A stretch of DNA of 64,000 nt, taken from NCBI RefSeq assembly GCF_000186865.1, contig NW_008705587.1, positions 76,602 through 140,601 of the forward strand, written 5' to 3'. The DNA comes from Aureococcus anophagefferens. Lineage: Eukaryota; Sar; Pelagophyceae; Pelagomonadales; Pelagomonadaceae. A model generated the notes under the pieces. The model was not told the DNA's origin. It searched no databases and saw only the letters and a program-made list of their open reading frames with translations. The translations under genes and the position numbers were made by a program. Of the stretch, positions 686 to 63,300 are shown one piece after another; within the stretch, counting starts at the first letter, position 1; each line of letters begins with the position of its first letter.

Positions 686-3600
686 CTAGAGCTCGCAGTT
701 GCCCTCGCTGCGGACCGGGTTCTCGACGTCGCCCGCGCCCGCGGACCGGGCGCGGGACGCGCGCGGCGCGCGCGGGAGCCGCGGGCGGCCCGGGGCCGTG
801 CTCGCGCGGCCCCGCGAGGGCCGCGCCGCGAGGGACGACTCGCGCCACGTGTCGACGAAGAGGAACTCGGAGAGGCGCGCGAGCGCGGACCGGCGCTTGC
901 CCGGCGTCGACTCGGACGGCTTCGGCGCGAGCTCGGACCAGTCGAGCCGGAGGACGCCCTCGAGGACGCAGCCGAGGTCCGACGACCCTCGCGTGAGCCG
1001 GACCTCGAAGGGCCCCGGCACCAGGGGCACCAATGCGTAGGCGGCGCCGTCGGCCTCGGAGCCCGCGGACGTCTCCGCGTCCGCCGTCTCCAAGCGCAAG
1101 AGGCAGTGGCGCGCGAGGCACCGGCGGACGTCGTCGGCCGTGACGGCGACGCCCCGGTCGGCCCAGGGCGCGCGCGCGACGTCGATGGCGGGCGCCCCCG
1201 CGGCGTCCAACGCCTCCGCGAGGCCCGCGAGGTGGCGGTCGGCCACGTCCGGGTCCTCCCAGGGCAGCGGGAAGACCATGGACGCGCGCGCGAGCCGGGA
1301 GACGTCCAGCTCCAGGTCGGGCGCCGCCGCGTGGCGGCCCGGGTCGATCTGCGCGGCGCCCAGCGGCGCCGGGCGCACGTGGAGGTGGGACGCGGCGACG
1401 CGGCACCGCTCGGNNNNNNNNNNNNNNNNNNNNNNNNNNNNNNNNNNNNNNNNNNNNNNNNNNGCTCCGCGGCCCGGGAGCGCCGCGTCGGCGTCGACCG
1501 AGCCCCGGAAGAGGTCCCGCCGCGCCGCGTCCGTGCGCAGGGAGAACCCGGCGCCGACGGCGCGGTGGTCGCTGCCCTCGACGGCGTCGAGGGACGCGTA
1601 GGAGACGCAGTCGAGGTCGTCGCGCCGCAGCGGCGCGCTGTGCGCGACGACGCGGTCCGTCCACGACGGCGGCCGGAGCCCCGCGCGCGCCGCCGCGGCG
1701 GAGATCGTGAGCTTCGGGTTCTCCGCGAGCCGCTGCTCCGCCGCGCGGCTCGCCGCGACGTCGCTCGGCTCGCCGCCGCCGCGCGGCCGCTTCTTCTCCT
1801 TGACGAGCGAGAAGAGGTCCGCGCGCGCCGCGGCGAGCAACGGCGCGTGCGCGTAGCCCTCGGACGCGGCGGCGCGCGCGCCGGCGACGTAGCGGTACGT
1901 CGGCGGGAAGTCGATGGGCGGCTCGGAAAAGCCGGCGAAGACGCGGCCCGCGGCCCGCTCCCGCCGCAGCTCGTCGTCGGCGAGCGCGTCGTCCCATAAC
2001 GCGCGCGCGTCCTCCAAATCGACGTCCGTCGCCGAGTCCGGGTCGTCGTGCGCGTCCGCGTCCGCGGCGCAGGCGCGGGCGACCTTGTCGAGCGTGTCGC
2101 GCGGCCGCGCCGTCGGCGCGCGGTAGTTCAGGTCTCCGAGGAAGAACGTGTGCGTCGCGGCGCCCAGGTGCGCGTCGCACGTCGCCGCGGGCCCGCGCAC
2201 GCCGAGGCCCTCGGCGGCCCGCGCGAGGGCGTCGCGCACCGCCGCGTGCCGCTTCTTCAGCTTCGCGCCGGCCTTGCCGTCCGCTGGGAGGTGGCAGCCG
2301 ACGAAGAGCAGCGTCGCGTCGTGGAACGTCACGAGGGCCGCGACGGCGCCCTTGTTCGGGAGGCCCGCCGCGCCCTGGGGGATGAGCGCGACGCCGTCGG
2401 CGGCGGACTCCGCCGCGACGGCCGGCGCCTCCCGGGGCTTCTCCGGCTTCGCGGCGGCGCCGGGCATCGCGATCGTCGGCGCCGCCTCCGGCGGCGCGGC
2501 CGCGGGCGGCGCGCCGTCGACGACCGGCGCCGGCGCCGCGCCGCCGCCGACGCGCGCGGCGCCGCGCCGCACGTCCGACGCCTTGGCGAAGACGGCCAGG
2601 CCGATGAACCCGTGGAAGCCGACGCCCGTGAGCGCGGAGCCGATGGCGCCCTTGCCGACGCACTCGTAGGCTTCGCCGCCGTCGCAGAGCACGCGCCGCG
2701 ACCGCGCGACGAGCTCGGCCCAGCAGAGGCACTCCTGGACCGCCAGCGCGTAGACGTCGTAGCCCCGGGGCAGCAGCGCCCGGAGCCTCTCCGCGACCTC
2801 GGCGTCGTCGCGCGCGCCCAGAAGCGCGGCGACGGTCGGCGCCTCCGCGCAGTTCGCCGTCGCGCACCAGACCTTCTTCTCCTCGTCCTCGAGACCCTCG
2901 TCCGCGAAGGACTCCAGGGAGGACTCCAGGGACGCCGGCGCGCCGCGCTCGGAGAAGCGCGGCTCCTCCGGCGGCGGCGGCTCCGACGCCCGGGGCGTCT
3001 CCCGGAGCTCGAGGCCCTTCGCGGAGCCGCGCCGCTCCGCGCGGTCGCCCACCTTGGGCACGCAGCAGAGCCGGTCCCAGAGGCCGTCGGACGTCGCCGT
3101 GAGCATCGCGAAGCAGAACCCGCCCAGCGGCGTCAGCGCGGACCGCGCCTGGGCAGCAAAAGGGTGATTCAACGTCGCTTAAAAAGGAGTGTTCCGCGCG
3201 CGAGCGTTCCAAAAAAAGCATCCACGCTTCGAGACCGTTCCGAGAGATGATCGCCCGTCCAAAAATTAGCCGAAACGAGTGGAAAACGGCCGAGATATGA
3301 GCCTTTGAAGTTGGGGAATTTCGCTCTCTTTTGCTGCCCTGGACCGCGCGAGCGCGAGCAGTTTCGCGCGCGCGTCCGCCGGCCGCGGCCCGAGCGCGAG
3401 CGCGGACGCGGCGACCTCGGGCCCCCAGCAGAGCGCGAAGGCGAGGACGTGGGCCCGCGCGCGGCGCCGCACGCGCCGCGCGCCCGACGACGGCGACCGA
3501 CCGAGCGCGCGCTCGACGCGCGAGTGGACCCAGAACGCGTACAGGAACGCGAGGACGACCCAGAGGCCGAAGCCCAGCGCGTGGGCCTCGTTCTCCGCGT

Positions 3601-10184: not shown

Positions 10185-10189
10185 TCACG

Positions 10190-26303: not shown

Positions 26304-26629
26304 GGCGGCGCCCTACAGGTCTCATTTCTCTGCATCAAAGATTTCTCGACTGAAAAAATCTATCGGCAGCATGGAATGAGCTTTATGTTGTCTTCTTCAT
26401 CGCCATCGCCATCGTCTTCATCATCATCTTCATCGGCCTCATCGTTCGTCGTCTTCGTTGGATCTCTGCTTTCGCGTAATCTAGCTTACACCCTAACCGT
26501 CGGGGGGGATCCGCCGCGCGCGTACCCACGCCCGTCCTACGCGCGCCTTCCATAATACCCGGCCACGCGGCGGCGCGGGACCCGTAAGGAACGGGCGGAC
26601 GTATGTACAGGCACTAGGGCGGAGCTGCC
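26304..26629. other. Intergenic region with a TTC/ATC-rich simple sequence
   Basis: 326 bp between two convergent genes. 26390-26460 is a degenerate trinucleotide tract of CATC/TTC/ATC words, unusual in composition here and probably 3' UTR. The rest shows no gene. The second copy of the 21-bp motif lies at its right end. Confidence 0.5.
26584..26606 (+). repeat. Dispersed 21-bp motif, copy B
   Basis: TAAGGAACGGGCGGACGTAT differs from copy A (24601) at one position across the shared 20-21 bases. It lies 24 bp beyond the stop codon of the minus-strand SnoaL-like gene. Confidence 0.6.
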
Positions 26630-27509
26630 TCAGACGAAGACGGGCGACGCGTGGTGGTGGCACATGAGCCACTTGCCGTCGCGGCGCTCGAAGACGTTGA
26701 TGGCCTCGAGGCTCGACGGCTCGTCGCCCGTCGTCTCCTGGCAGGTGACCCAGGCGACGTTGCCGCGGATGACGACCTTCTGGCGCGTCGCGCGCAGGGC
26801 CGGCATCTCGGTGCCCGTGGAGAAGAGCGCGCGCCAGCTGTTGACGACGGCGGCGGACCCGGCGATGACCGGGTGGCCCGGGTGCACGCACGACACGTCG
26901 TCGCCCGCCGCCCAGACGTCCTGCATCTTCCGCACGTCCGAGCTCGTGAACGCGTCGTAGAAGGCCGCGTTCGCCTGGGCAGGACAAGAGAGCGAAATTC
27001 CCAACTTCAAAGGCTCCTAGCTCGGCCGATTTCCACTCGTTTCGGCTGATTTTTGGACGAGCGATCATCTCTCGGAGCGCTCTCGAAGCGTGGGTGCTGT
27101 TTCTGAAACGCGCGCGCGCGGAACACTCACGTTGAAGCGACGTTGAATCACCCTTGTCCTGCCCTGGCGTTCGCGGAGAGCACGCTCATCTCCGCCGAGA
27201 GCCGGAGGCTCGAGAGCTCCTCGCCGATGGCCGCGACGTCGCCGCCGTCGGCGCTGGCCAGGCGCGCCTCGAGCTCGGGGATCTGCTCCGTGATGTCGAG
27301 CGCCGGGCCCTCGGAGGCCCCGCGCGGCGCCGAGCGCCGCGTCGCGCGGAGCGGCGCGACGAGACCTACAAAAAGAGTTTCTGCGCATTTCTAGGGCGTG
27401 AGTTCGCTATCGAAAGCGCTCCTTTTCGGGCTAGACGCTGCATGAGACCCGACGCGGACGCGAGGAGTGCCGCTAGAAGGATCCACCGCGTCCGTGGCAA
27501 GCAGTCCAT
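26630..27509 (-). CDS. SnoaL/NTF2-like protein with signal or plastid-targeting leader
   Basis: Three exons, 27449-27509, 27175-27365 and 26630-26974 (198 residues). The first intron is a conventional one; the second is introner copy 2. The leader MDCLPRTRWILLAALLASAS followed by GLVAPLRATRR looks like a secretory signal plus plastid transit peptide (cleavage at ASG-LVAP). The C-terminal 120 residues (NAAFYDAFTSSDVRKMQDVW ... ERRDGKWLMCHHHASPVF) match the cone-shaped SnoaL/DUF4440 fold with Trp and His of the pocket. Such proteins are small hydrolases, isomerases or ligand-binding proteins; the substrate is unknown. Intron boundaries are inferred from frame, and the total coding length is a multiple of three. 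Confidence 0.7.
26975..27174 (-). mobile_element. Introner element copy 2 (family 1, subfamily II), spliced as a GC-AG intron
   Basis: The element spans 26975-27166 (192 bp) with terminal repeats GGGCAGGACAAG / CTTGTCCTGCCC and target duplication GCGTTCGC (26967-26974 and 27167-27174). In the minus-strand sense the donor is GCGAACGC, taken from the duplication, and the acceptor is CTGCCCAG from the element. Splicing restores SVLSANAAFYDAF in phase 0. Confidence 0.93.
27366..27448 (-). other. First intron of the SnoaL-like gene (83 nt, GT-AG) with a short repeated junction
   Basis: In the gene sense it begins GTCTCATGCAG and ends CTCTTTTTGTAG, with a good pyrimidine tract. The exon side of the acceptor begins GTCTCGTC, so GGTCTC occurs at both junctions. 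This resembles the footprint of an introner target duplication, but no inverted termini remain. Confidence 0.55.
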
Positions 27510-33439: not shown

Positions 33440-34845
33440 TTACAGCTCCTCCTCCTCCGGGTCCGCGATGGCGAACGCCTGGGTCCCGCCCGGCCGCGCG
33501 GCGACCTCGAGGACCGCGAGCGGCGCGGCGCCCGGCGACCGCCGGAGCCGCGCGACGAAGACGTGGCCCGCGAAGGTCGAGATGTCCGTGGACCCCTGGG
33601 GCTCCAGGAGGCCGACCTTGGTCTCCGCGCCGCCCGGGCTCCGCCAGAAGAGCTCGACGGCCTCGTCGCCGAGATTCGCGAACGACGCGGCGACGGGCGC
33701 GTCGGCCGGCGGCGGCTCCGTCGTCCCGTCCAGCGCGTCGACGCGGGCGAGGTCCGCCGCCGACAGGCAGAGCTGGAGCGCGCCGCCGACGTAGGTCCGC
33801 GCGTTCGCGGCGATGTGCGCCGGCGACGACGACCGGGGGATGACGACGGCGCCGCGCTGCACGGCCCAGCTCAGCGCGACGGCCGCCGCGGAGGCGCCCG
33901 ACGGCGCGCCGATGGCCCGGAGCGTCGGCGACGCGAGCACCGGGTTCCCGCGCCGCTGCATCTCCCACTGCGTGCCTGGGCAGGAAAAGGGTGCGAAATT
34001 CCCAACTGCAAAGGCTCCTATCTCGGTCGTTTTCCGCTCGTTTCGGCTGATTTTTGGACGAGCGATCATCTCTCGGAGCGCTCTCGAAGCGTGGGTGCTG
34101 TTTCCGAAACGCGCGCAGGCGGAACACTCACGTTGAAGCGACGTTGAATCACCCTTTTCCTGCCCTGCTGCGTGCCCAACGTGCTGTACGACATGAAGAC
34201 GACGCCCGCGCGCTCCGCCGCGGCCCGGAGCGGTTTCTCGGCGTGGAAGGGGTCCATCCAGGTCTGGAAGACGTGGGGCTTCACCTTCGCGAAGTTGAGC
34301 AGCTCCCTGAACTCGGCGTCGCGGAAGTTCGACGCGCCGACGGCCTTCACGGCGCCGGCGGCGTACGCGGCCTCCATCGCGCGCCACGAGTCGCGCCAGT
34401 CGCCCTCGACCCGTTTCTGCCAGCCCTTGCCGCAGAGGCCGTCCCAGCAGCTCGGGTAGTGCTGGAGGAAGACGTCGACGTAGCCGCCGAAGCGCGCCGC
34501 GGACGCGGCGATCTTCGCGGCCGCGGAGTTCGCGCCGTGGTCGCGCGGGTGCATCTTCGTCACGATCACGACGTCGCTCCGCGGCACGCCGCTCCGCGCG
34601 AGGCCCTCGGCGACGGCGGCCTCGTCGTACCACTCCGCGGCCTGGGCCGTGTCGAGGAGCCGCGCGCCGGCGCGCAGCGCCGCCTCGACGCTCGCCGCCG
34701 TCGCGCGGCCGGCGCAGCCGTAGCCGACGCGCGGCATCTCGACGCCGTTGGACAGCGTCACGTTGGGACTCGTGCAGATGTCTTCCGATGCCATCGCGGC
34801 GACGACGGCGCACGACGCGGCGAGCAGGCGAGAGCCTGCGCCCAT
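33440..34845 (-). CDS. Secreted aldo/keto reductase with C-terminal VHL-beta-like domain
   Basis: Two exons, 34176-34845 and 33440-33975, separated by introner copy 3; splicing gives FMSYSTLG-TQWEMQRRG in phase 1 (401 residues). A signal peptide (RLLAASCAVVAAMASE) is followed by the AKR barrel: LDTAQAAEWYDEAAVAEGL supplies Asp and Tyr, VIVTKMHP the Lys, and FLQHYPSCW the His, so the NADPH-dependent reductase tetrad is intact. VIPRSSSPAHIAANA near 270 is the cofactor-binding 'IPKS' block. After about residue 305, ASFANLGDEAVELFW ... STDISTFAGHVFVAR resembles the VHL beta domain. It is divergent from the MFS gene with 164 bp between starts. Confidence 0.88.
33976..34175 (-). mobile_element. Introner element copy 3 (family 1, subfamily II), spliced as a GC-AG intron
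   Basis: The element spans 33976-34167 (192 bp) with perfect 16-nt inverted repeats GGGCAGGAAAAGGGTG and target duplication CTGCGTGC (33968-33975 and 34168-34175). In the gene sense the donor GCACGCAG comes from the duplication and the acceptor is CTGCCCAG. Splicing reconstructs the aldo/keto reductase segment YSTLGTQWE, strong family-based proof that removal is exact. Confidence 0.96.
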
Positions 34846-35009: not shown

Positions 35010-36712
35010 ATGGCGGCGTGCGCCGGCGCGTCCGGCGCCGGGCGGCCGCTGGTCATGATGGCCGTGCTCGGCGTGCTCTGGGGCGGCGCCTGCTTCGGGT
35101 TCAACGGCATCAAGCGCGTGCTGCTCATCGAGGGCCTCTTCCTCGACGCCTGCGACGGCGGCGAGGCGCGCTGCGGCGCCCAGCTCGACCGCCTCGACTT
35201 CGCGTGGACGTTCAGCTCGAGCATGCTCAACGTCTTCGCGATCGTCAACGGCTGCGCGATCGACGCGCTGGGCCTGCGGCGCGTCTGCTTCCTGAGCGGC
35301 GGCCTGCTGGGTTTAGGCGCGGTGTGCTTCGGCCTCGTCGTGACGCGCGCGCGGCTCGAGTACCTGCTCGCGTACGCGTACTTCGCGCTCGTCGAATCGG
35401 GCATGCTCCTGAGCTTCGGGGGCCTGTCGCTCCAGGGCGCGGAGGGGTCCGTCGCGCTCTGCGGCCGCGTCTTCGACGTCAAGGTCGTCGCGGCGCCGGT
35501 CATGGAGACGGCCTTCGCGCTCGGGACGCTCGTGTTCCCGCTGCTCGGGCTCGCGTACGACGCAGGGCAGCAAAAGAGAGCGAAGTTCCCAACTTCAAAG
35601 GCTCATATCTCGGCCGTTTTCCACTCGTTTCGGCTGATTTTTGGACGAGCGATCATCTCTCGGAACGGTCTCGAAGCGTGGATGCTTTTTCCGGAACGCG
35701 CGCGCGCGGAACACTCACGTTGAAGCGACGTTGAATCACCCTTGTGCTGCCCAGGTACGACGCCGCGCCGTCGCTCGGCGTCGCGGGGCTCCACTGCGTC
35801 TACTTCGGGTGCTGCGCGGCGCTCATCGCGGCCTGCGGCTGCGCCGTGGCGCCGCGGCCCCTGCGGCGGCCCGCGCGCGACGTCGCCGCGGCGCTGGACC
35901 GGCGCGCGCTCTGCTTCGTCCTCGCGGCGAGCCTCGCCGTCGGCGCGAACATCACGCAGCAGGGCTACTACGTGGCGACGTTCAGCGAGCAGGCGGCCTG
36001 GCACGGCCGGCCCGAGACCCTCGGGGCGCTACTGGACTGGGGCTTCCCGGCCCTCGCGCTGCCGTCGCTCGTCGTCGTCGCGCGCCTGGAGGAGCGGTGG
36101 CACGACGGCGGCTTCGAGCGGACGTGCGGCCACGGCTACGCCGCGCTGGCGCTCGCCCAGGTCATCTGGGGCGTGTTGAGCGCCGCGCGCGACTGGCGGT
36201 TGCAGATCGGCGCCGTCGCGCTCTTCGTGCCCGCGCGGCTCCTCGGGTTCGTGCACCTCTACGAGTCCGTGGGCTTCTTCTTCCCGCCGGAGCACTTCGG
36301 CGTCGTCGCGGGCACGTGCGCGTCCGTCGGCGGCCTGGCCGCCGCCGTCGCGTCGGAGTGCCTGAAGCGGTGGCTCCACGCGTCGGGCGGCGACCCGCGG
36401 CGGCCGAACCTGGCCCTCGCGGCCGCGCTCGCGGCGCTGAACCTGGCCGCGGGCGCCGCGGCGCCGCGCGCGCGGCTCGGGCGCCGCGGCGCCGCGGCGT
36501 CGCCGCGGACGCCGGTCTACAACCCGGTGCACTTCGACGACGACGGGCCCGGCTCCAAGGACGCGGGCCTCGAGCTCGCGGACGCCGTCGCGCGGAGCCC
36601 CGCGGCCGCGGCGCCGACGCCCGTCGCCGCGCTCGACTTCGGCGAATCGGCGCCGGCGCGGGACTCGGCCGTCGCGTCCTACGCCGACGAGTCGGAGCTC
36701 TACGAGTTATGA
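35010..36712 (+). CDS. Major facilitator superfamily carrier (SLC43-like)
   Basis: Two exons, 35010-35554 and 35755-36712 (500 residues), separated by introner copy 4; splicing gives LLGLAYDAAPSLG in phase 2. Eleven to twelve hydrophobic helices are visible. The first half has FAWTFSSSMLNVFAIVNGCAIDALGLRR, a version of MFS motif A between helices 2 and 3. The layout resembles the SLC43 / yeast Fmp42 group, carriers of large neutral amino acids or similar solutes. The C-terminal 90 residues are a disordered cytosolic tail. Start ATG 35010 gives the first helix a short N-terminus. Confidence 0.8.
35555..35754 (+). mobile_element. Introner element copy 4 (family 1, subfamily I), spliced as a GT-AG intron
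   Basis: The element spans 35563-35754 (192 bp) with termini GGGCAGCA(A/C)AAG and target duplication GTACGACG (35555-35562 and 35755-35762). The donor GTACGACG is the duplicated gene sequence; the acceptor CTGCCCAG belongs to the element. The internal sequence is in the same gene-sense polarity as copy 1. Confidence 0.95.
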
Positions 36713-39261: not shown

Positions 39262-39311
39262 NNNNNNNNNNNNNNNNNNNNNNNNNNNNNNNNNNNNNNN
39301 NNNNNNNNNNN
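39262..39311. other. Assembly gap (50 N)
   Basis: Gap directly at the left edge of the Pro-Thr repeat array; the array probably caused the assembly break. The 5' end of the von Willebrand A gene is hidden here or just left of it. Confidence 0.99.
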
Positions 39312-39550
39312 CGAGCCCACGGCCGACCCGTCGGCCGAGCCCACGGCCGCGCCCACGGCCGACCCGTCGGCCGCGCCCACGGGCGACCCGTCGGCCGCGC
39401 CGACGGGCATCCCGACGGCCGACCCGTCGGCCGCGCCCACGGCCGAGCCGACGGCCGACCCGTCGGCCGCGCCCACGGCCGCGCCCACGGCCGCGCCCAC
39501 GGCCGCGCCCACGGCCGACCCGTCGGCCGGGCCCACGGGCATCCCGACGG
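39312..39550 (+). repeat. Tandem Pro-Thr coding repeats
   Basis: Degenerate units of 12-24 bp built from CCCACGGCCGACCCGTCGGC and variants, encoding (A/E/G)PTA(D/A)PSA. The array resumes after the intron (39674-39830) and is cut on the left by the N gap. Confidence 0.9.
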
Positions 39551-40971
39551 CGGCACTGGCGCCTGCGCCATGACGCCGCCGTCCACTGGCGCCTCCCGCG
39601 CCTGTGAGACCCCTCTGAGCCTCCCGTCCCCCGCGGTTCCTCCCGGGCCCCCTACGTTTAGAGACGCGTCAAGGCATCCCGACGGCCGACCCGACCGCCG
39701 CGCCCACGTCCGACCCGACGGCCGGCACGGGCGCGCCCACGACCGACCCGTCGGCCGCGCCCACGGGCGTGCCGACGGCCGACCCGTCGGCCGCGCCCAC
39801 GGGCACGCCCACGACCGACCCGACCGCGCCGCTGCTCATCGCCGAGTGCCTCGACGAAGCGGCGTACTACGTCTTCGGCTTGGACGCGAGCAAGTCGATG
39901 GAGGAAACTGGCTGGAACATCGCTCGCAAGTTCACCCAGGATATGGCGAAGACGCTGCTCGATTTGAACGACGAGAGGATCTCAGCGGGTCTAGAGCCGC
40001 ACCAGGTGGCGGCGTACTGGTTCAACGGGGCGCACGTTAACTCCCCGGGCACGTTCACGGAGTTCACGACCGACTACGACGCTTTCGAGGTTTCCATACT
40101 CGACTATGGCGAGGTCGAGGAAGCACAGACGCAGCACCCGCAAGGGTTCCAGAAGGCCACACTGTGGCTGGACCCCGTCACTTCGAAGTTCAAGAGCCAC
40201 GTGCTGATCACCGACGGCGCTCCGTTCGCGGCCACCGGACCCTGCAAGAACGGAGAGAGCCTGGGGCATCTCATCGGAGGAACTCCGGAGCACAACTACG
40301 AAACGTTCACGGACATTCGAGACACTCCGTGCCGCGCGGAGTGCGCCGTCTTGGATTGCGACGCGACCGGTCCGACGGGCTGCCTGGAGCAAATGAGACC
40401 TTGGGCCAAGGCAGATTGCCTGAGTGAGGACGGGAAGAGCGACAAAGGCAAAGCCGAGGCGTGCGAGTGCGCGCTCCACGTCGCCGAACTCTTCAACGCG
40501 GTGCCGCACTTCTCGACGACGGTCGTGGGCGTCCAGAACGCGCATAATCCCGAGGAACGGTACACGGAGATCTTCGACGCGATGGCGTCGACCCCGGGCC
40601 ACTACATCGACGCGATGGGCGGCGAGCTCGGGGAAGACGATATCACCGAATACGTGGACCGGACGCTGCGAGCCGCGTGCAACACGCCGTACCAGAAGTG
40701 CCAACGGAACAACGACGTCTCGACGTTCCCGCGCGACAAGTACGCCGACGGCGACGACGAGTTCCAGCACAAGAGCTGGGCCATCGGCTGCGACTTCGCC
40801 GAGAAGTACCCGGACCTTCCCGAAGGATGCGACGCCGAATGCGACGGTGGAGACGGAGGAGGCGAAGGCGTCGGAGGCTGCTGCGGCGAAACCTGCAGCG
40901 GAAACTGCGACACTTCGAGGCTTATCTGCAGAGACGCGTGCGACTACTACTACGACCTCGCCGACGGCTAG
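39312..40971 (+). CDS. Cell-surface von Willebrand factor A domain protein with Pro-Thr repeat stalk (5' end missing)
   Basis: Coding from the gap edge to the stop at 40971, with an inferred intron at 39539-39673. The N-terminal visible part is an array of PTADPSAAPT-type repeats, a stalk style common in stramenopile surface proteins and probably O-glycosylated. A vWA domain follows: VFGLDASKSMEETGW carries the DxSxS of a metal-ion-dependent adhesion site, FKSHVLITDGAPFA the later Asp strand, and HFSTTVVGVQNAHN and YIDAMGGELGEDDI the closing elements. Many Cys and a Gly-rich Cys motif (GCCGETCSGNCDTSRLICRD) end the protein. A secreted or wall-anchored adhesion role is inferred. Confidence 0.75.
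39539..39673 (+). other. Inferred GC-AG intron in the repeat stalk (135 nt)
   Basis: The repeat frame runs into a stop at about 39571, and the same repeat resumes at 39674. The sequence GCATCCCGACGG occurs both at the donor (39539) and right after the acceptor TCAAG (39672-39673). Removal gives PTG-IPTADPTAAPT in phase 1. Because the repeats themselves contain this word, the exact boundary is uncertain. No inverted termini are seen. Confidence 0.5.
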
Positions 40972-51759: not shown

Positions 51760-54700
51760 CCCGGGCGGAGGTCGAGCGTGGTCCGCGTCGCGTTCGCGGA
51801 GGACTCGTGCTCCTTGCGCGTCTTGACGATGGCGAGGTGGGGCCGGCCGGCCTTGAGCTTCTCGAGGCCCGCCTTGGACTTGGTCCGGCACCGGCTCGGG
51901 TCGCCGTGGAGCGTGCCCGCCTTTGTTTTTTTGTTTGACTGGGAGCCCGTCCGCGCGGCTCCCGGCGACGAACCCGGCGGCGCGGCCGACGCGCCGTAGA
52001 TGTCGACGTGCGTGAGCCGCCGGCAGTGGTCCACGAAGCGGTGGAGGAAGGGCTCGGGAAGCCGGGCGCAGTGGGCGAGCGACGCGACGCTCAGGGGCAG
52101 GAGCGAGCCCCGGAGTAGAGCGAAGGGCTCCAAAGACGCGCAGCCGCCGAGGTCCAGATGCGTCAGCCGCGGCAGGTTCGCGTCGAGGCGCCGTAGACCG
52201 TCGCAGCGCGGGAGGCACAGCGCCAGGAGCCGCGGCGCGTCGAGCACCAAGGCGTCGACGCCGTGGCACGCGTCGAGCTCGAGCGCCTCGAGGTTCTCGA
52301 AGACGAGCGTGTTCCGCGGCAGCTCCGGGCCGCCGTCGTCGTCGCGGTCCCGGCGCCGCCCCCCGAAGTCGCTCCGCGCGTTGCCCGGCGAGCTCCCCGG
52401 CGACGACGACAGGGCCGACGTCGGCGTCGGCGACCGGCTCAGGCGCGCGTCGCCCTCGGACTCGTAGTCGCTGTGCGACTCGTCGGGGTCCCGCGCGGCG
52501 CCGCCCGGCGACGAGCCCGGCGGCGCCGCGAGCCCGCGCCTTCTGCGAAACTCGTCGACGTCCTCGAGCAGTTCCAAGAGCGGCCGGAGCTTGCGCTCGG
52601 ACTTGTGCGCCTTCGCGCAGAAGCCGTGCGCGAACTCGCAGTCGCGGTTCCAACAGCGACCCGCGAGGAACCGCGCGCACGCGGCCCGGCCGCTGTTCCT
52701 GTCGCTCGGCAGCGTCGACGCGACCTTGGCGTAGCGCCGGTACTCGGCGCCGCGCGTGTCCGCGAGGCGCCGCATCAGCGCGGCGACGGGGCCGTCCTCG
52801 TGGCCGGGGCAGCCGACGTGGCATTGGAGCAAGGGGTCGAAGCGCTCCTTCGTCGCGGACCGCGACGCCTTCGCGGCCTTGCCGCTGGACCGGCGCCGCT
52901 CGGACGAGGGCGGCGTCGCGTTCGGCGGCGTGCCGCGCGGTGGAGCGTCCGGCGTCCTCGAGGGCGCGGACCGGGGCCGCCGCCGGGCCGCGTCGTCGAA
53001 CGCGGGCTGGCGCAGCGGCGTCGACGCCGCCTCGCTGAAGCGCACGCTGCCCCGGGGCGCGCGCGCCTCGTCGAGGTCGTCGAGCTCGAAGAGGGGGTCG
53101 CCCTCGTCGTCGTCGTCGTCGCCGCGGCCCGCCTTGACGGGCGTCATCTCGCCGAAGTGGCCTGGGCGGGAAAAGAGTGCGAAATTCCCAACTTCAAAGG
53201 CTCCTCTCTCGGTCATGTTCCACTCGTTTCGGCTCATTCTTGGACGAGCGATGATCTCTCGGAGCGCTCTCGAAGCGTGGATCCTTTCTCTGGAACGATC
53301 GCGCGCGGAACCCTCACGTTGAAGCGACGTTGAATCACGCGTTTCCCGCTCCGGAAGTGGCCGTCGGACGTCGCGGAGAGCTTGCGGTCGCTCTCGCGCG
53401 CGGACGCCGCCGCGAACGCGCCGTCGTCGACGAGCGCGCCCCGGAGCGCCGCGCAGGCCGCGAGCCGCAGGCGCCGCAGCGCCGGGCACGCGACGGGCAG
53501 CGCCGAGAGGTGCTTGGCGCCGAAGTCGCGCGCGGCGACCAGCTCGAGCACGACGAGCCCGTCCAAGTGGGGCGCCGCCGCGCCGAGATAGGCCGCGCGC
53601 CGCGCCGCCCGGCCGCAGAGCGCCGCGCCCAGCGACAGGCCCGCGTCGCCGGGCACGGGCGCGCGCGCGACGGCCGGAGCGTCGCCCGTCTCGTCGAGCG
53701 TCAGCGACTTGAGCGCGGCGCCGCCGCTCGAGCTCACGGCCGCGAAGGCCGCCGCGAAGGCGTCCGTCGGCGCGCGCAGGCGCCGGAGCGCGTGGAAGTC
53801 GCGGGGCGCCGCCTCCGCGTGGGCCCGGTCGCCGAAGCCGCCGCGGCACCGCGCGCACGTCAGCTCCGCGAGCACGGGGCAGTGCGGCCGCCGGTCCGGC
53901 GCCGCGCACGCGAGGCGTTTCACCACGCAGCGGTCCAGGCTCAGGGCCACGAGCTGGTGGCACCGTTCCAGGAGGACCTCGCCGAAGACGACGTGCGACA
54001 CGTGGAGCGACTCGAGGCGCGGGGCCCGCAGCACGCAGTCGTCGTCGTCGCCGTCGCCGCCGGGCGGCGCCGTGCGCGCGAGGGACGCGGTCTTCAACGT
54101 CGCTTCCAACGTGCGCAGGGCCAGCGCGACGTGGGCCGCCGCGAGGCTCGGCGACGCGAGGTTCAACGTCCGCAGCTTCAGGCGCCGCGTCGAGGACGCG
54201 CGGGTCGCCGCAGGTCACGGACACGTGCTGGAGCCGCGGCAGCGCCCCGAGCGCCGCGACGTCGCCCAGCGCCGGCGCGGACGCCGCCGGCAGGTCCGCG
54301 CCCCAGCCGCCGCGCGCCTCGAACTCCGACACGGAGGCGGGCACCTTCGCGACGAGCGCCGCCAACCAGTCGTCGCGGACCTCCCGCCTCGCGTGGCCGA
54401 CCAGGGCGACGCGCAGGCTCCGCAGGTTCGACCCCCGGAAGGGCGCGTCGAAGGGCGCGAGGTCCGCCAGCGATTCCGCCAGCGCGAGCTCCACGTCCGC
54501 CGCGTCGTAGACGTCGTCGGTCGTCGCGTCGTCGCCGTCGTCCCCAAAGTCGTCGTCCGCGGCCAGGAGCGCCAGCGCCGCGTCGCGCCGCGCCGCCGGC
54601 GCCGCGCGCGGCGCCGGCCGCCGCAGGTCGACGCGCACGGACGCCAGCGCGAGGCCGGACGTCGCGAGCGCGTACCATGTTGGCCCGGCCTCGAGCGCCG

Positions 54701-55963
54701 CGCACCGCCGGCAGCTCAGGTCCCGCAGGCCCGGGCACCCGCCGAGGACGCCGCCGAGGGCCTCGTCGCCGAAGTGGGCGCAGCCGTCGACGTTGAGGCG
54801 CGTCAGGCGCGCGCAGCCGCGCGCCGCGTCCGCGAAGCGGGGCCCCGCGCCCGTGCCGCAAAAGTCGACGCTCTCGACCGTCGCGGCGACGGCGGCCGCG
54901 AGCGCCGCGGCGGCGCCGTCGCTGACGGCCGGCGCGTCGCGGAATCGTAGCTCCCTGAGCGTCGGCGCGCAGGTGGCTAAAGCATCGGCGAACCTTCCCT
55001 CGGCCTCGCGCGCGCCGCTGACCTTGAAGGCGACGAGGCCGACCTGGGCAGGAAAAGGGTGCGAAATTCCCAACTTCAAAGGCTCCTATCTCGGTCGTTT
55101 CCCGCTCGTTTCGGCTGATTTTTGGACGAGCGATCATCTCTCGGAGCGCTCTCGAAGCGTGGGTGCTGTTTCCTAAACGCGCGCGCGCGGAACACTTGTA
55201 TAGAACAGAGCTTGAATCACTCTTTTCCTGCTCCGAGGCCGACGCCGTCGACGGCGCGGAGCACGGACTTGAGCTCGCCGTCGCCGACGCCCGCGAGGCT
55301 CGCGGCCTCGCCGTGGGCCGCGGCGCGCGCGCGGCCGAGGAGCGCCGACATCTGCCGCCGGCGCGCCGTCCGCGACCGGCCCGCGTCGGACCGCGCGGAG
55401 GGCGCGGACCGCGGCGCGACGTCGTCGCCGAAGCCGCCGCCGCCGCGGTCGACGTCGTCGTCGTCCCGCGCGGACGGCCCGCCGAAGAGGCGGCTCCACG
55501 TCGCCGGCACGACGCCGCCCTGGCCGCCGCCGAGCCCCGCCGCGCGGACCTCGATCGCCGTCACCGCCGCGCCGCCGCGCTCGCGCTCGTGGAGCGCGCG
55601 CGTCAGCCACCGCGCGAGCGTCGCCCCGAAGTGGGACGGCCAGCCGACGACGACGCGCCCGCAGAGCGCCGGCAGCGCGCGCACGCCCTCCGTGACGCCG
55701 CGCTCTGTGACGCCGAGCGGCACGGACCCGAGCTCGAGCGAGCAGACCTCCGAGCCCGGCGCGAGCGCCGCGCGCGCGAGCGCGTCGCTCAGGCGGTCGC
55801 TCTCCGCCGCGTAGGCCCAGAGGCCCTCGAGCACCGACGCCGGCGCGAAGCAGAGCTGCTGGGCCAGGAGCGACGAGCCCTCGGCGTCCTGCGAGATGCA
55901 CGCGACGACGCGCCGCGCGCACATCTCCTGCAGGTCCCGGATGCGCCAGGACTGGGACGACAT
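51756..55963 (-). CDS. Leucine-rich-repeat protein with CCCH zinc finger; two introners and one apparent frameshift
   Basis: Three exons: 55244-55963, 53362-55043 and 51756-53161 (about 1270 residues). Exons join as DGVG-LVAFKVSG (copy 6, phase 0) and SDGHF-GEMTPVK (copy 5, phase 1). Within exon 2 the frame shifts near 54180, where one extra base joins PRVLDAA to LKLRTLNLAS. LRRs of the cysteine-containing (AMN1/F-box) type, such as ARLTRLNVDGCAHFGDEAL and CPGLRDLSCRRCAALE, occupy much of exon 2 and return in exon 3 (LRRLDANLPRLTHLDLGGCA). Exon 3 also has a CCCH finger (CARFLAGRCWNRDCEFAHG, spacing C-x7-C-x4-C-x3-H), an RNA-binding type. Possibly a ubiquitin-ligase substrate receptor or an RNA regulator; inferred only. 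Confidence 0.75.
53162..53361 (-). mobile_element. Introner element copy 5 (family 1, subfamily II), spliced as a GC-AG intron
   Basis: The element spans 53162-53353 (192 bp); termini GGGCGGGAAAAG and CGTTTCCCGCTCC are partly decayed. Target duplication GAAGTGGC (53154-53161 and 53354-53361). Donor GCCACTTC from the duplication, acceptor CCGCCCAG from the element. Splicing yields DGHFGEMTP in phase 1. Confidence 0.93.
55044..55243 (-). mobile_element. Introner element copy 6 (family 1, subfamily II), spliced as a GT-AG intron
   Basis: The element spans 55044-55235 (192 bp), termini GGGCAGGAAAAG and CTTTTCCTGCTCC. Target duplication AGGCCGAC (55036-55043 and 55236-55243). Donor GTCGGCCT is duplicated gene sequence, acceptor CTGCCCAG is element. 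Splicing gives DGVGLVAFK in phase 0. Confidence 0.94.
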
Positions 55964-57337: not shown

Positions 57338-58318
57338 CTTCCATGCCACTTAGCTAGCACGGCGGCCACCTCGCGTCCGCGGAGGGGCCCCGCGGCCTCG
57401 CGCCGCCGGAGGTGCGCGAGGACGTGGGGCGTCTCCGCGACGGCGAGGAGGAGGTCCTCGAGCGTCAGGTGGCCGTCGCCGGCGTCCGCGTCGACCCACG
57501 CGAGCGACGCGGAGAGCGCGTCGTCGACGGGGACGTGGACGCGCGCGAGGACCTGTGTGGATTCCAACCACTGGTTTAAACTTCAGAACTCTCTACAATT
57601 GTAGCTCGGTCAAATCGAAGTCGATTCGGCTGATTTTTGGACGAATCGATTGCTCTCGTCAAGTTCTCGAAGCACAGCGAAAGAGTCTGGTCCAAACCGT
57701 TCGTTTACGCTCACATTGAAGTCGGGTTGAATATTTGAATTCCACGCGCGCGAGGACCCGGTCCGCGTCGCGGGATCGCAAAACGCGCGGGCCCCGGCCG
57801 TCGTCGTAGGCCGCGAGCACCGCGTTGTAGGCCGCGACGAGGTTCGCGCGGAACCGCGGCGGCAGGTTGTCGCGCGCGGCGCGGAGCCGCGCCTCGCGCG
57901 CGCGCGCGGCCGCCGCCGTCGTCGCGCGCGACACGCGGCGGTACTCCTCGCCCGGCCCCCGCTCTTCGATCGCGGCCCAGTCGACGGCCTCGCGCCGCTC
58001 GTCGTCCTCGGCCCGGAGCTCGAGGACGGCCACGGCGTAGGTCGGGTCGTTGCGGCTCGCGTTCCAGTGCAGGCGCTCCGAGTTCGCGGCGAAGATCGCC
58101 TCCATGCGCGGGAACGGCACGCCCATGCGCAGGATCGGGTTCTGCGGCTCGCGCGCGACGCGCGTCTCGTCCTCCCGGTCCTCGATGGCGAACGCGATCT
58201 TCTCGACGCGCTCCTTGCTGTGCTTCAGGCCCGCCGCCTCCCGCGCCGTCTGCACGCCGTCGATGGCCCGATCCGTCGCGCCTTTGAACTTATCGGCGAC
58301 GTAGTTGAGGGCGTCCAT
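57223..58318 (-). CDS. Hypothetical protein with EF-hand-like loop
   Basis: Exons 57758-58318 and 57223-57552 (296 residues) separated by introner copy 7; splicing gives RDADR-VLARVHVPVDDAL in phase 0. The first 190 residues are charged and helical (MDALNYVADKFKGATDRAID). Near residue 205, WVDADAGDGHLTLEDLLLAV resembles an EF-hand with one extra residue in the loop, so calcium binding is possible but not certain. The last 38 codons run antisense into the DnaJ-lectin gene (57223-57337) and may not all be translated. A more upstream in-frame start lacks an ATG with better context. No family is named. Confidence 0.65.
57553..57757 (-). mobile_element. Introner element copy 7 (family 2), spliced as a GT-AG intron
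   Basis: The element spans 57553-57749 (197 bp) and starts CTGTGTGGATTCCAA. The other terminus GAATTCCAC has lost the last bases expected from copy 8, and the target duplication is extended (ACGCGCGCGAGGACC occurs on both sides). The internal core TTCGGCTGATTTTTGGACGA is shared with family 1. In the gene sense the donor is GTCCTCGC and the acceptor CCACACAG. Confidence 0.88.
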
Positions 58319-58525: not shown

Positions 58526-59272
58526 ATGAGCGCGCCGCCCAAAGAAATAATCGAGGCTGCTATACGGGGTGATGTCGACGCGCTGCGAAACTGGTTCGCG
58601 ACTGGAAATCGAGACGCAAATGCCGTCTTTGATTTCTGTGATTGGGAACACGGTGACGAAGACGAAGACCATCGGGCCACTCTCTTGCATTGTGTCGTCC
58701 TACGAGATCCGTTTTATCGGTCTGATGCAACTGATGCGGTCCGCCTTCTGCTTGAGTACGGCGCTGACGTGAATACGGCGACGGAATATGAAAATCAGGT
58801 GATCGGGTGGTGCGAGTTCCCGCAAGAGATGAACGTGCTGCTCGATGGCGGCGCTGATATCCACGCTCTTATGGATGGTATCATCTTTCGTCATCACGGC
58901 CTCGCGCTCGCAAAAGTCGCTTTGCGTCGTGGCAGACTTTGGGATTTTGAAAGTGGCGTTTGGAAGGGCATTGTGGATGGCTACTATGACACAGCTCTGG
59001 CTACAAATCCAAAAACTGTAAAGGACTTCATTCGCGAGTTCAAGTCCGCCGGCAGCTGGAAAGCGTACGCGCGGCAACCGCGCGTCGAGCTCGTGCGACT
59101 CCGCTCGCTCTGCGCGCGCGGCCGCGCGACGCCGCCGCCGGAGCTCGAGCGCCTCTTCGACTGCCCGTCCTCGGTCACGACAAAGGCCAAAGCCGCGCGC
59201 GCCGCGCGCCCGCTGCCGAAGGAGGTCTTCTGGCTCGTGCTCTCCTACTGGCGCTCGAGCCGGGACGACTGA
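58526..59272 (+). CDS. Ankyrin-type protein, tandem paralogue A
   Basis: 248 residues from ATG 58526. Begins MSAPPKEIIEAAIRGDVDAL, then two or three degenerate ankyrin repeats (ATLLHCVVLRDPF ... AVRLLLEYGADVNTATE). The C-terminal module SAGSWKAYARQPRVELVRLR, RATPPPELERLFDC and PLPKEVFWLVLSYWRSSRDD is shared with paralogue B and the 28.9-kb ankyrin protein. The first half has mixed A/T and G/C at third positions, unlike most neighbours, while the end is GC-rich. Function unknown. Confidence 0.8.
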   Translation: MSAPPKEIIEAAIRGDVDALRNWFATGNRDANAVFDFCDWEHGDEDEDHRATLLHCVVLRDPFYRSDATDAVRLLLEYGADVNTATEYENQVIGWCEFPQEMNVLLDGGADIHALMDGIIFRHHGLALAKVALRRGRLWDFESGVWKGIVDGYYDTALATNPKTVKDFIREFKSAGSWKAYARQPRVELVRLRSLCARGRATPPPELERLFDCPSSVTTKAKAARAARPLPKEVFWLVLSYWRSSRDD

Positions 59273-59526
59273 GCAGCACGCAAACCAAGACAGCCTCCTA
59301 GCTAAGAATACAGATTACGCGCACGACGGGCTCCGGGGTAGTCCATGTGCCGACGGTGTCTTTTTACCTTTGATGCGTCTACACGTCGGGAGGCTGTCGG
59401 GCGCCTGGCGAAAGTCGACGTCGAATTTCACCACAGCAAGCTCTTTGGCTTAGGCCCCGGGCCATCTCCGGGCCGCTCGAGCCGCGGTGGAGCCTGTGCC
59501 ACGAGGCCGGAGACACGGTGATTAAG

Positions 59527-60294
59527 ATGAGCGCGCCGCCCAAAGAAATAGTCGAGGCTGCTATGCGGGGCGACGTCGAAACGCTGCGAGACTGGTTCGC
59601 GACTGGCAACCGAGACCCAAATGCCGTCTTCGATATTGAAGGTTTGGCAGAGTCTGAGTCTGATAGTGAGGACAACAACCCCTGGAACGGCAGTCTGTTG
59701 CATTGCCTAACCTACCCAACTCCTTGTTTACGCTCTGATGCAAGTGACGCGATCCGTCTTGTCCTGGCGCACGGCGCCGACCCGAATCTTCAAAATCGAG
59801 AGGGCGCGCCGCCCATCCATTGGTGCGAGTTCCCGGAAGAGATGAGCGTGCTGATCGATGCCGGTGCTGATATGAGCGGTCTTCAGGATTTCGGTCTCCT
59901 TTTTCGTCATCACGGGCTCGCGCTCACAAAACTCGCTTTACGTCGTGGCCTGCTTTGGGATTTTGACGATTGGGTTTGGAAGAAGGTTTCGGCTGGCGAA
60001 TACGTAGGGCTCATTACTAGTCATGCTGAAACGCCAGAAACCATAATGGCCTTCATTCGCGAGTTCACGTCCGCCGGCAGCTGGAAAGCCTACGCGCGCC
60101 AACCGCGCGTCGAGCTCGTGCGGCTTCGCTCGCTCTGCACGCGCGGCCGCGCGACGCCGCCGCCGGAGCTCGAGCGCCTCTTCGACTGCCCGTCCTCGGC
60201 CACGACGAAAACCAAAGCCGCGCGCGCCGCGCGCCCGCTGCCGAACGAGGTCTTCTGGCACGTGCTCTCCTTCTGGCGCTCGAGCCGGGACTGA
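59527..60294 (+). CDS. Ankyrin-type protein, tandem paralogue B
   Basis: 255 residues from ATG 59527; a GTG at 59518 adds only three residues. Closely related to paralogue A along the whole length, from MSAPPKEIVEAAMRGDVETL to EVFWHVLSFWRSSRD. It has a slightly longer acidic loop (SESDSEDNNPWNG) after the first unit. The C-terminal module is nearly identical in DNA to that of A, whereas the centre has diverged, suggesting recent duplication followed by conversion of the 3' part. Confidence 0.8.
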   Translation: MSAPPKEIVEAAMRGDVETLRDWFATGNRDPNAVFDIEGLAESESDSEDNNPWNGSLLHCLTYPTPCLRSDASDAIRLVLAHGADPNLQNREGAPPIHWCEFPEEMSVLIDAGADMSGLQDFGLLFRHHGLALTKLALRRGLLWDFDDWVWKKVSAGEYVGLITSHAETPETIMAFIREFTSAGSWKAYARQPRVELVRLRSLCTRGRATPPPELERLFDCPSSATTKTKAARAARPLPNEVFWHVLSFWRSSRD

Positions 60295-60314
60295 ATAAGA
60301 TCTAAGACTACAGA

Positions 60315-63300
60315 TTACGCGCACGACGGGCTCCGGGGCAGGTCGAAGCACTCAAAGTCGACGGCGACGAGGTCGCAGACCGTGCGGTTCGCCGCCGCGG
60401 ACAGGCGCGCGACGCTCGCCTCGAGCGCGGCCTCGCAGGGCGTCCCTTTCGACTCGTGGTACTTCTCCGGCGCCGCGGCGCCAAAGGCCGCGGCGAGGTC
60501 GTCGCCGAGGTGCGCGAGCTCGCCGACGAAGGCCAGGGGGAGCGGGTCGTCCTCCCCGGCGACGGGGAGCCGCGCGTCGACCTTGAGCGCCTGGGGCCAC
60601 GCGTGGAAGAAGGGCTCGCCTGTGTGGAAATCAACCTCTGGTTTGGGGGGTCCCCACCAAACTTCAGAACTCTCTATCTCAATCAAATCGAAGTCGATTC
60701 GGCTGATTTTTGGACGAATCGACTGCTCTCATCGAGTTCTCGAAGCACGGCGAAAGAGTCTGGTCCAAATCGGTCGATTACGCGCACATTGAAGTCGGGT
60801 TGAAGATTTGATTTCCACACAGGGGCTCGCCGAGGTAGCGGCCCGCGGCCATGTCGTCCAGAAGCGCGGCGACGCCCGCGTCGCTCGGCCGGTCGTCGCG
60901 CGGGAGGCGCAGGAACGTGCTGTTCCTGCCCTTCTCCTCGGGTCGCCGCTCGTTGCAGACGGCCTGGCGCACGCCGGCCCAGAACACGTGCACGGGGTCG
61001 TGGACGAACGTGAACGCGACGGCGTCGCCGCGCGCGGGCGCGACGGGGCCCTTGGCGCGGTGCCGGCTGCAGGTGCGGCCGTCCCAGGCCGCGCACTGGT
61101 CGCCGAGGCACGCGCAGCGCGCGTCGACGTCCGCGCCGAGCACGCGGCCGAGGTCCTTGGCGAACGTCGTCGAGCCGGCCTTTTGGTTCGCGACGTAGAA
61201 AAGCTCGACGTCGTCGTTGTCGCCGGTACCGCGCAGGGGCTCGGCGACGGCGGCGCGCGGCACCGTCGCCGCGAGCACGAGCGTCGTCGCGTGGGCGCCC
61301 GGCGCGGCCCAGCCCTCGACGACGGCGGCCCGGGACCGCCGCGCGGCGACGCACGCGGGCCGCGCGAACGCGCGCGCGCGTTTGGCGCCGCGCGCCGCGC
61401 GGGACGCGTCGGCGGGCCGCGGCGGCGTCGTCGCGTTTTTGTTGTGTGTTTTGTGTTTCGTCGACGCGACCGCCGGAGGAACCGCAGAAGGAACCGCCGG
61501 AGGAACCCCGGGCGTCGTCGCGTTCCCCGCGGTGGCCCCGTAGCCGTGGACGGCGCAGAGGTCGCTGACGCTGAAGGGGGCGCCGCGGCCCCGTTGGTCC
61601 GCCTGGTCGGCGATGCCCAGGAGCCCGCCCTTCATCTTCGTCTGCTTCGTCGGCTTGGGCCGGACGCCCTCGCCGAGGAGCGCGCGCCAGCTGTCCGCGC
61701 GCGCGGCCTCGTCGGCCTTGTCCGGCGGGTTGCAGGCCTCGCCCGCGACGAGGCGGTCCGCCTGGAGGTAGAGGACGCCGATGCCCATGGCGGGCCCCGC
61801 GTTCTTCGTCGCGTGGGCCCACCCTTCCGGCACGAGCATGAGATCGCCCGGGCCCTGGTCGCACTCGAACTTGGGCCCGCCGGCGTCGACCCAGGCCCGC
61901 GTCGGCTTCGCGGACACGGCGTTGTCCGCTGGTGGTGCTAAATACCACTTCTTCGTGCCGAAGACGAGCAAATTGTAGGCCGCGTCGTGGAAGTGGACCG
62001 TCGCGCCCGCGTCGTCGCCGCCGGCGAAGAGCTGGACGTGGCGCCAGAAGACGAAGGCGTCCCTGAGCACGGGCAGGGGCGCCGCGGTCTTGGGCCCCTT
62101 GAAGGCCTCGGGCAGGTTGCGCAGCACGGGCTCGCCGATGAGGGCCTCGGGCGCGCCCGCCTGCGCGACGCAGACGGGCTTCACGCCGTTGGCGCATACC
62201 GGCGCGGGGCCGTTCGCGAGGTCGTCCATGGAGAAGACGCCGCAGGCGTCCTGCTGCGTCATCCAGGGGTACGCCGTCGCGCCGCAGCGCGACTTGTTCC
62301 GCGCGCCGTCGGCGACGTCGCGCGCGCCCCGCCCGAGGAACGCGCAGCGGTCGCGGAGCGGCATGGCGCCCCGGACGAGCACGGGCCGGCTCACGGACGC
62401 GTAGTCGCGCACGAAGGCCTCGGGCGTCAGGTCCGCCGCGTCGACGACGTCGAGGTCGCAGGTCCGCGGGACGTCGGCGTCGATGGCCCAGCCGCCGCCC
62501 TCGGCGCACGTCGCGTCGCCATCGTCGGCCGGCGTCCGGGGCGTCCCGCCGGCCGGCGGGCGGTCTCCGTCGCGCGCACGGGCGCCGTCGGTGCCCCGGC
62601 GCTCGCGGCGCTCCTCCTCGCTTTCGCCGGAGTGCCGGGGCGTCCCGCCGGCCGGCGGGGGCGCGGCGGCGCGGCGGCGGCGGCGGCGCGCGGGCCAGCC
62701 CGCGAAGGCGTCGGCGACCTCGGCCGGCGTCACCGAGAACCCCCGCAGTTCCGCGTCGCTCCGGAGCCGCGCCGCGATCGCCCGCGCCTTCGGGTCCGCC
62801 TTGTCGAGCGCGCCGGCGAGCGTCTTCAGCACGCCGACCTCCCCGCGCCGCGCCGCGATGTCGAGCGGCGTGACGCCTTTCCACGTCGCGAGGGGATCCG
62901 CGCCCGCTCTCAGAAGCGCCGCCGCGGACGCGCCGAGGCCGTGCGTCGCCGCGACGTGGAGCGGCGACGCGCTGGCGCCGCTCGGCCGCGCCGCGAGCGC
63001 CGGGTCCGTCGCCAGGAGCGCGGCGAGCGCCGGAAGGAGTTTCGCCTCGAGGCGTGCGACGACGTCGCTCCGGCGGAGATGCGAGCCGCCGCCGAGCTGA
63101 GAATCAGGCCGCTCGGGGAGGAACCAGGGCGCCAAGGTCGCGATCGTCGACGCGCGGCGGATCTGGAAGCCGTCTAATAGCGCATGAAACGACCGCGAGG
63201 CGTCGGCGGCGTCGGACGCGGCGCCCGCCGCGACGAGGGCCTCGATGCCCGACGCGTTGTGCCGCGCGCAGGCCACGTGCAGGGCGCTCCGATCGTCGGG

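What the first reader, a model, noticed from the sequence alone, without database searches (positions are those of the whole stretch)
3149..60830. Eight introner elements, each a perfectly spliced intron made by a DNA transposon
Copies at 3149, 26975, 33976, 35555, 53162, 55044, 57553 and 60620 are 192-203 bp long with terminal inverted repeats. Seven are flanked by clean 8-bp target duplications; in copy 7 the duplication is extended or eroded. In every case removing the element plus one duplication copy restores an open frame, and at 33976 it rebuilds a conserved aldo/keto reductase segment. The donor comes from the duplicated gene sequence and the acceptor from the element. Such elements are established for Aureococcus and Micromonas; the copies here appear as independent insertions in seven genes.
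Basis: partly seen in the sequence, partly recalled or inferred. Interest (0 to 1): 0.9.

Follow-up and report, generated by a model that had tools for sequence, protein, structure and literature searches.

The report
Aureococcus introners: DNA transposons becoming introns
These are copies of a short jumping DNA element in a brown-tide alga that lands in genes and, to all appearances, is cut out of the RNA as a ready-made intron; such elements are already known from this alga, but counts across the genome show how strictly the copies examined fit their genes, and hint at an unexplained matching of the element's two ends.

Summary
All eight elements are present, each with an exact 8-bp target duplication. 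Named homologues place the genome in Aureococcus anophagefferens; it holds 1,836 exact copies of the elements' core. Introners are already reported from this alga (PMC7789003, PMC9860276; passages read), so the kind is known.

Splicing is supported without RNA. Of 93 cleanly delimited copies, 86 have clear coding flanks. In 86 of 86 the duplication starts with GC or GT on the coding strand and excision restores the frame; all 64 with a single acceptor end have it on the coding strand. The AG base is changed in 0 of 86, the same base at the other end in 22 of 86. Intron phases match codon supply. Strict-ended family-A elements: 1,130 with one acceptor, 14 hits with two (about 7 genuine), none with zero. 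Family B: 387 with two, usable in either orientation.

Two positions of the terminal arms covary across about 170 bp (r2 0.67, 0.59); a shuffle control backs one, not the other. No transposase was identified.

The parts
3149..3341 (-). family A introner, 193 bp; 8-bp duplications 3141-3148 and 3342-3349; predicted intron 3349-3149 on - strand, donor GC
26975..27166 (-). family A introner, 192 bp; duplications 26967-26974 and 27167-27174; predicted intron 27174-26975, donor GC; SnoaL-like gene
33976..34167 (-). family A introner, 192 bp; duplications 33968-33975 and 34168-34175; predicted intron 34175-33976, donor GC; inside the aldo/keto reductase domain
   Evidence: (PF00248 spans the junction)
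35563..35754 (+). family A introner, 192 bp, body in the opposite orientation to its gene than in the copies at 26975 and 33976; duplications 35555-35562 and 35755-35762; predicted intron 35555-35754, donor GT
   Evidence: (homologues continuous across junction)
53162..53353 (-). family A introner, 192 bp; duplications 53154-53161 and 53354-53361; predicted intron 53361-53162, donor GC; donor-side end eroded
55044..55235 (-). family A introner, 192 bp; duplications 55036-55043 and 55236-55243; predicted intron 55243-55044, donor GT; donor-side end eroded
57553..57749 (-). family B introner, 197 bp; duplications 57545-57552 and 57750-57757; predicted intron 57757-57553, donor GT; donor-side end eroded
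60620..60822 (-). family B introner, 203 bp, AG at both ends; duplications 60612-60619 and 60823-60830; predicted intron 60830-60620, donor GC

Best explanation
They are introners: short non-autonomous DNA transposons (MITE-like) that insert with an 8-bp target duplication and are removed from the RNA as spliceosomal introns. SHOWN on DNA: each terminal repeat, read outward, is pyrimidine-rich; where its second base is T the end reads ...CAG on the other strand, a 3' splice site. The 5' splice site is the first two bases (GC or GT) of the upstream duplication, so removing duplication plus element restores the gene exactly. Family A, in the sample, carries an acceptor at one end (at either end of the body, by copy); many family B elements carry one at both ends and so fit a gene in either orientation. 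INFERRED: insertion does not aim at GY; copies without GY on the right side, or in the wrong orientation, were removed by selection. With GY at 20% of coding positions and half of orientations wrong, a one-acceptor element would be spliceable in about one of ten coding insertions. INFERRED: a cognate transposase moves them in trans (not found), and splicing uses the ordinary spliceosome (no RNA seen).
For: Exact duplications in 8 of 8 window copies and 82 of 93 clean sample copies; the other 11 have one mismatch, the most the caller allowed. GC/GT donor and restored frame in 86 of 86; acceptor on the coding strand in 64 of 64 one-acceptor copies (the other 22 have AG at both ends and cannot fail). 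Only 3 of 86 have a removed length divisible by 3. Second set: coding strand 23 of 23 by joined score, GY 22 of 23, one GA. GY background 0.20, so all-GY by chance is about 10^-60; the mirror position of the duplication is not enriched, 24 of 86 against 21.6% expected, p 0.10. Phases 35/21/30 observed, 33.2/22.8/30.1 expected from GY supply. Acceptor base changed in 0 of 86, same base at the donor end in 22 of 86. Strict family-A ends: 1,130 with one acceptor (control 1), 0 with none (control 1 per strand); no acceptor-less copy among the 93 either. Domain and homologue continuity at 33976, 35563, 57553.
Against: No RNA data. Deposited gene models P0011, P0012 and P0013 read into the 60620 element and end there: mis-annotation or retention. 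Seven of 93 clean copies, the window's 33976 copy among them, lacked clear coding flanks by the criterion; one of the seven, L031, lies antisense to its gene, apparently nested in an older intron. One donor is GA (L122) and 2 of 23 duplications are not exact. No transposase with matching ends was found. The codon model was trained on the same DNA on which it was used, though without knowledge of the elements' orientation.
Confidence: 0.95

Rival explanations
1. Ordinary repeated introns spread by RNA-level copying (reverse splicing or intron transposition), not by a DNA transposase.
For: The copies are intron-like and near-identical (40 scored matches of one copy at 96-100%).
Against: Fixed 8-bp duplications, terminal inverted repeats, bodies in both orientations relative to the gene and an apparently nested antisense copy (L031) are DNA-transposon marks; reverse splicing would not be expected to duplicate 8 bp of target or reverse the body.
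Confidence: 0.03
2. MITEs that just sit in genes and are only mildly harmful; the intron pattern is a by-product and most copies are not spliced.
For: Deposited models at 60620 are unspliced; donors show no strong consensus beyond GY.
Against: 86 of 86 with GY donors and restored frame, 64 of 64 one-acceptor copies on the coding strand; acceptor base changed in 0 of 86 against 22 of 86 at the other end; no acceptor-less copy with strict family-A ends in the genome.
Confidence: 0.03
3. For the matched terminal arms only: RNA pairing of the arms is selected because it helps splicing, rather than arm-to-arm copying at the DNA level.
For: The arms pair in the predicted fold of most introns: 10 or more of 14 bases in 93% of 54 A and 78% of 32 B (no shuffled control); arm positions covary.
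Against: Among arm mismatches, wobble-compatible changes (18) are no commoner than non-pairing transitions (19); 45 more are transversions. So no sign that pairing is guarded after insertion. (The two pieces folded lack the donor arm and do not test this.)
Confidence: 0.25

Closest known systems
Aureococcus anophagefferens introner elements (Huff, Zilberman and Roy 2016, Nature; recalled, the paper is not held; mentioned in PMC7789003, passages read)
   Same: Same organism; terminal inverted repeats and direct repeats of constant length, canonical splice motifs (PMC7789003); one splice site from the element and one from the duplication (recalled from the 2016 abstract).
   Different: Probably the very same families. 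The acceptor-end counts, the two-acceptor family, the decay asymmetry and the arm covariation were not in the passages I read; I cannot say whether the 2016 paper has them.
Introners of 175 genomes, Gozashti et al. 2022 (PMC9860276; section 7 and found passages read)
   Same: 3' splice site carried by the element and 5' splice site recruited from the duplication (their Fig. 2B type); opposite-orientation copies and GC/GA donors are allowed for.
   Different: Their Aureococcus sp. example (Fig. 2F legend) is another type that adds 12 bp to the transcript; the range of GC donors they give is 0-50.0% per family, here 50 of 86 are GC, 10 of 23 in the second set.
Amoebophrya introners (PMC7789003, passages read)
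   Same: Inverted and direct repeats, hairpin-forming ends.
   Different: Those have varied repeats and non-canonical splice sites; these have fixed 8-bp duplications and, with one GA exception in 109 tested, GY-AG.
hAT-type MITEs
   Same: 8-bp duplication and an end beginning CAGGG (that hAT ends read YARNG is recalled).
   Different: No hAT transposase found, and the control was silent, so no membership claim.

Membership tests
introner | many near-identical introns at different positions | tested here: met
   1,836 exact cores; duplications differ from copy to copy; coding flanks in 86 of 93 clean copies
introner | precise removal from mRNA | not testable with these tools
   no RNA; frame, codon and homologue evidence only, with contrary gene models at 60620
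non-autonomous DNA transposon (MITE) | terminal inverted repeats | tested here: met
   arm concordance
non-autonomous DNA transposon (MITE) | target duplication of fixed length | tested here: met
   8 bp, exact in 8 of 8 window copies and 82 of 93 clean sample copies (copies with more than one mismatch were not called clean)
non-autonomous DNA transposon (MITE) | autonomous partner with the same ends | tested here: inconclusive
   PF05699 and PF18758 no match, controls silent; PF10551 and PF12762 no match, controls rang in 4 and 1 genomes; PF21787 one locus with stops, control silent, no good match to introner ends in the readable part
hAT superfamily | hAT transposase with matching ends | tested here: inconclusive
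   no match to PF05699, but the control rang nowhere
P superfamily | P-type transposase with matching ends | tested here: inconclusive
   one PF21787 locus with stops at C25:178372 (link of this family to P elements recalled); best end matches only 3-4 mismatches in 14-15 bases; about 1 kb to its left reads N

The most novel reading that the evidence does not exclude
The two terminal arms of each introner are kept alike by a DNA-level process that copies one arm onto the other (for example through a hairpin during transposition or repair), at least at the variable positions 9 and 11 of family A and seven positions of family B. This would make a transposon end a self-renewing 3' splice site: both ends carry a pyrimidine-rich stretch, and one base (A or T at position 2) decides whether an end is an acceptor. 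Family A keeps one acceptor end yet has swapped which end of the body bears it several times; family B often has an acceptor at both ends and so inserts usefully in either orientation.
Probability: 0.35. Interest if true: 0.7.

Novelty: already known. Interest (0 to 1): 0.5.

Why it matters
Introners are among the best direct evidence for how new introns arise in bulk. The counts here separate insertion from selection in one genome: the donor dinucleotide is at 100% on one side of the duplication and at background on the other, phases follow codon supply, and the acceptor base is frozen while the same base at the other end decays. If the arm-matching result stands, it adds a mechanism (arm-to-arm renewal of transposon ends) that could explain how a transposon keeps a working splice acceptor at its tip and how orientation-independent introners arise. 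It also gives sharp end sequences with which to look for the still unknown transposase.

Tried and rejected
Viral transfer: the core was scanned for in the viral-contig collection; one hit (L099), inside a 662-aa ORF, with nothing of the element visible around it, taken as chance (no homology search of that contig was run, and the tool warns that records near the window's own genome may be left out). Open-frame counting as evidence: dropped. RNA-pairing selection on the arms: wobble test shows no sign of it, 18 against 19. Exchange of bodies between elements as the sole cause of arm matching: less likely, since positions 9 and 11 of one arm are unlinked (r2 0.00) while each is linked to its partner about 170 bp away (0.67, 0.59). 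But low linkage between neighbours is common in these elements: of 12 pairs of variable body columns at most 10 bp apart, 9 have r2 of 0.13 or less, so the 0.00 alone proves nothing; the cross-arm values are the point. Within-cluster shuffles: position 9 matches in 73 of 82, shuffles at most 71; position 11 in 72 of 82, shuffle mean 68.5, maximum 74, i.e. not beyond the shuffles; 54 clusters, most of one copy, give this test little power. One origin of each acceptor side: the tree of 85 bodies needs 11 changes, at least 3 forced by well supported branches, and most branches are weak. Transposase search: see membership test. Papers: listings only; passages in PMC9860276 (also section 7), PMC7789003 and PMC12768974; the 2016 Nature paper is not held.

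Counting notes: the 109 exact-core places come from 98 loci (L001-L098, mostly contig C1) plus the window; 93 were cleanly delimited (at most one mismatch in the duplication, a minimum end score that favours C followed by A or T alike at both ends), 16 were dropped. Reading the 16 by eye, 14 have both flanks coding on one strand and in those 14 the AG end lies on that strand; 2 (L030, L060) do not have coding on both sides. In one search, three of the 23 (L107, L111, L120) had one flank scoring best on the other strand, and one flank of L118 scored below zero. Of the 14 two-acceptor places (control 4), I read 7 as genuine; in the others the match starts inside a duplication that ends in CTGGG.
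Full report
What is there. The window lies in a 49.05-Mb, 86-contig genome. Homologues of three window proteins are named as Aureococcus anophagefferens, with locus-tag prefixes JL720, JL721, JL722 and SO694, so the organism is that alga or a very close relative. All eight reported elements are present, 192-203 bp, each between exact 8-bp duplications. Six belong to a family A (intact ends CAGGGCAG / CTGCCCAG in gene sense, 192-193 bp) and two to a family B (ends CTGTGTGG / CCACACAG; 203 bp in 26 of 34 sampled copies). The shared central core TCGGCTGATTTTTGGACGA is exact in six of the eight and occurs 1,836 times in the genome, its backward control never.

Do they behave as introns? Open frames prove little here, so I trained a codon model on the fetched DNA. 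Of 109 exact-core places, mostly on contig C1, 93 were cleanly delimited. Of these, 86 have clear coding sequence on both sides. In 86 of 86 the duplication begins with GC (50) or GT (36) on the coding strand, and the codon frame continues when element plus one duplication is removed; only 3 of the 86 have a removed length divisible by three. Sixty-four of the 86 have AG at one end only, and in 64 of 64 that end is the 3' end on the coding strand; the other 22, family B with AG at both ends, cannot fail this test. Seven had unclear flanks, among them the window's 33976 copy; another (L031) sits antisense to its gene in what looks like a pre-existing intron, where neither rule should apply. A second set of 23 family-A copies, found by their ends rather than their core, agrees: the joined codon score is best on the acceptor strand in 23 of 23, donors are GT 12, GC 10, GA 1, and duplications are exact in 21.

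Selection or aim? GC or GT makes up 20% of dinucleotides in the coding flanks, so 86 of 86 is about 10^-60 by chance. The mirror position at the other end of the duplication shows no significant excess (24 of 86, expected 21.6%, p 0.10), as expected if the transposase does not choose GY and unspliceable insertions were lost. Phases (35/21/30) are close to those predicted from where codons offer GY (33.2/22.8/30.1); GT donors are absent from phase 1, where GT is almost absent from codons. GT is used about twice as often as its share of the supply (42% against 22%). The second terminal base, which makes the AG, is unchanged at the acceptor end in 86 of 86 and changed at the donor end in 22 of 86 (12 of 54 A, 10 of 32 B). 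Across the genome, family-A elements with strict 8-base ends number 1,130 with one acceptor end (control 1), 14 places with two (control 4; about 7 genuine on reading), none with zero (control 1 per strand); eroded ends are not counted by these patterns, but none of the 93 sampled copies lacks an acceptor. Family B has 387 elements with exact core and both ends acceptor-like (control 0); the 22 such copies with clear coding in the sample sit 10 on one strand and 12 on the other, i.e. they are used in either orientation.

Protein evidence in the window. The aldo/keto reductase domain (PF00248, 8e-32, residues 120-374) runs across the 33976 junction at residue 292. At 35563 the junction FPLLGL|AYDAAP is continuous in P0001, P0002 and P0004 and, with substitutions, in P0005-P0009; P0003 lacks that stretch and P0010 does not align there. 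At 57553, P0014 is continuous across the junction; P0015 joins the downstream part at another place, P0016 and P0017 do not cover it cleanly (read by eye). At 60620 the deposited models P0011, P0012 and P0013 read on into the element and end inside it with the residues that the unspliced window sequence encodes. So other assemblies share this insertion (P0013 is JL720; P0012's contig has the length of the JL722 one) and their annotators did not splice it; the codon model nevertheless finds the downstream exon in frame. Four of the seven proteins sent to Pfam had no match.

The ends. The 15 bases before the AG are 72% pyrimidine, the same stretch read off the other end 75%, so both tips are near-acceptors and one base decides. 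Variable arm positions match across the two arms: in 82 family-A copies, r2 between the arms is 0.67 at position 9 and 0.59 at position 11, against 0.00 between positions 9 and 11 of one arm and at most 0.22 with any variable body column. Low linkage between close sites is, however, common in the bodies too: 9 of 12 pairs of variable columns within 10 bp have r2 of 0.13 or less. Position 2, which sets the acceptor side, is not free of the rest: r2 0.69 with left position 17 and up to 0.43 with the body. Among 13 copies with near-identical bodies (chained at three or fewer differences) all four arm types occur and 10 of 13 are matched. Family B shows arm-to-arm r2 of 0.23-0.56 at seven positions, with some neighbouring positions linked as blocks. 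Unmatched arms exist, and one such type (CA/CC) recurs in five copies, so matching is not an absolute need. Within-body-cluster shuffles are exceeded at position 9 and not at position 11. Which end of the body bears the acceptor has switched at least three times, eleven on the best tree. RNA pairing is not obviously what is guarded: wobble-compatible mismatches are as common as non-pairing transitions, 18 and 19. I read this as arm-to-arm renewal at the DNA level, with modest confidence.

What moves them is unknown. No match for the KDZ or hAT-dimer families (controls silent), none for MULE or DDE_Tnp_IS1595 (controls rang); one locus with in-frame stops for TNP-like RNase H, a family I associate with P elements from memory, without good matches to introner ends in its readable part. 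Six-frame searches of this kind can miss split genes, so absence is not shown.

Known or new. PMC7789003 (passages) states that introners with direct repeats, terminal inverted repeats of constant length and canonical motifs were described in A. anophagefferens; PMC9860276 (section 7 and passages) describes element-borne 3' and duplication-borne 5' splice sites across eukaryotes. The 2016 Nature paper that is the primary source is known to me by recall only. The finding is therefore a correct rediscovery; the acceptor-end census, the decay asymmetry, the two-acceptor family and the arm matching may be additions, but I could not check them against that paper.

Noticed in passing
window 39288-39857: Repeats with a 12-bp period (21 of the 22 register matches of a 126-nt unit), next to a run of 50 N at 39262-39311; a second N run lies at 1414-1463.
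   Followed up: no
window 25207-26310: Tandem repeats spaced 183-186 bp, 60-96% alike, in a stretch that the codon model reads as coding.
   Followed up: no
window 58526-60291: Duplicated blocks spaced 1001-1025 bp, 78-92% alike, between introner copies 7 and 8.
   Followed up: no
window 60620-60830; proteins P0011-P0013: Deposited gene models run into the introner and take their last residues from it: either mis-annotation or a truncated protein from a retained intron.
   Followed up: partly
L031 1426-1634: Introner antisense to its gene, apparently nested at the 5' edge of an older short intron; the exception that fits the rule.
   Followed up: partly
L105 1501-1947 (G000 C25:178372-178818): Single TNP-like RNase H transposase locus with in-frame stops; about 1 kb at the left end of the locus reads N.
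   Followed up: partly
L122: Introner whose duplication starts with GA, i.e. a possible GA-AG intron.
   Followed up: no
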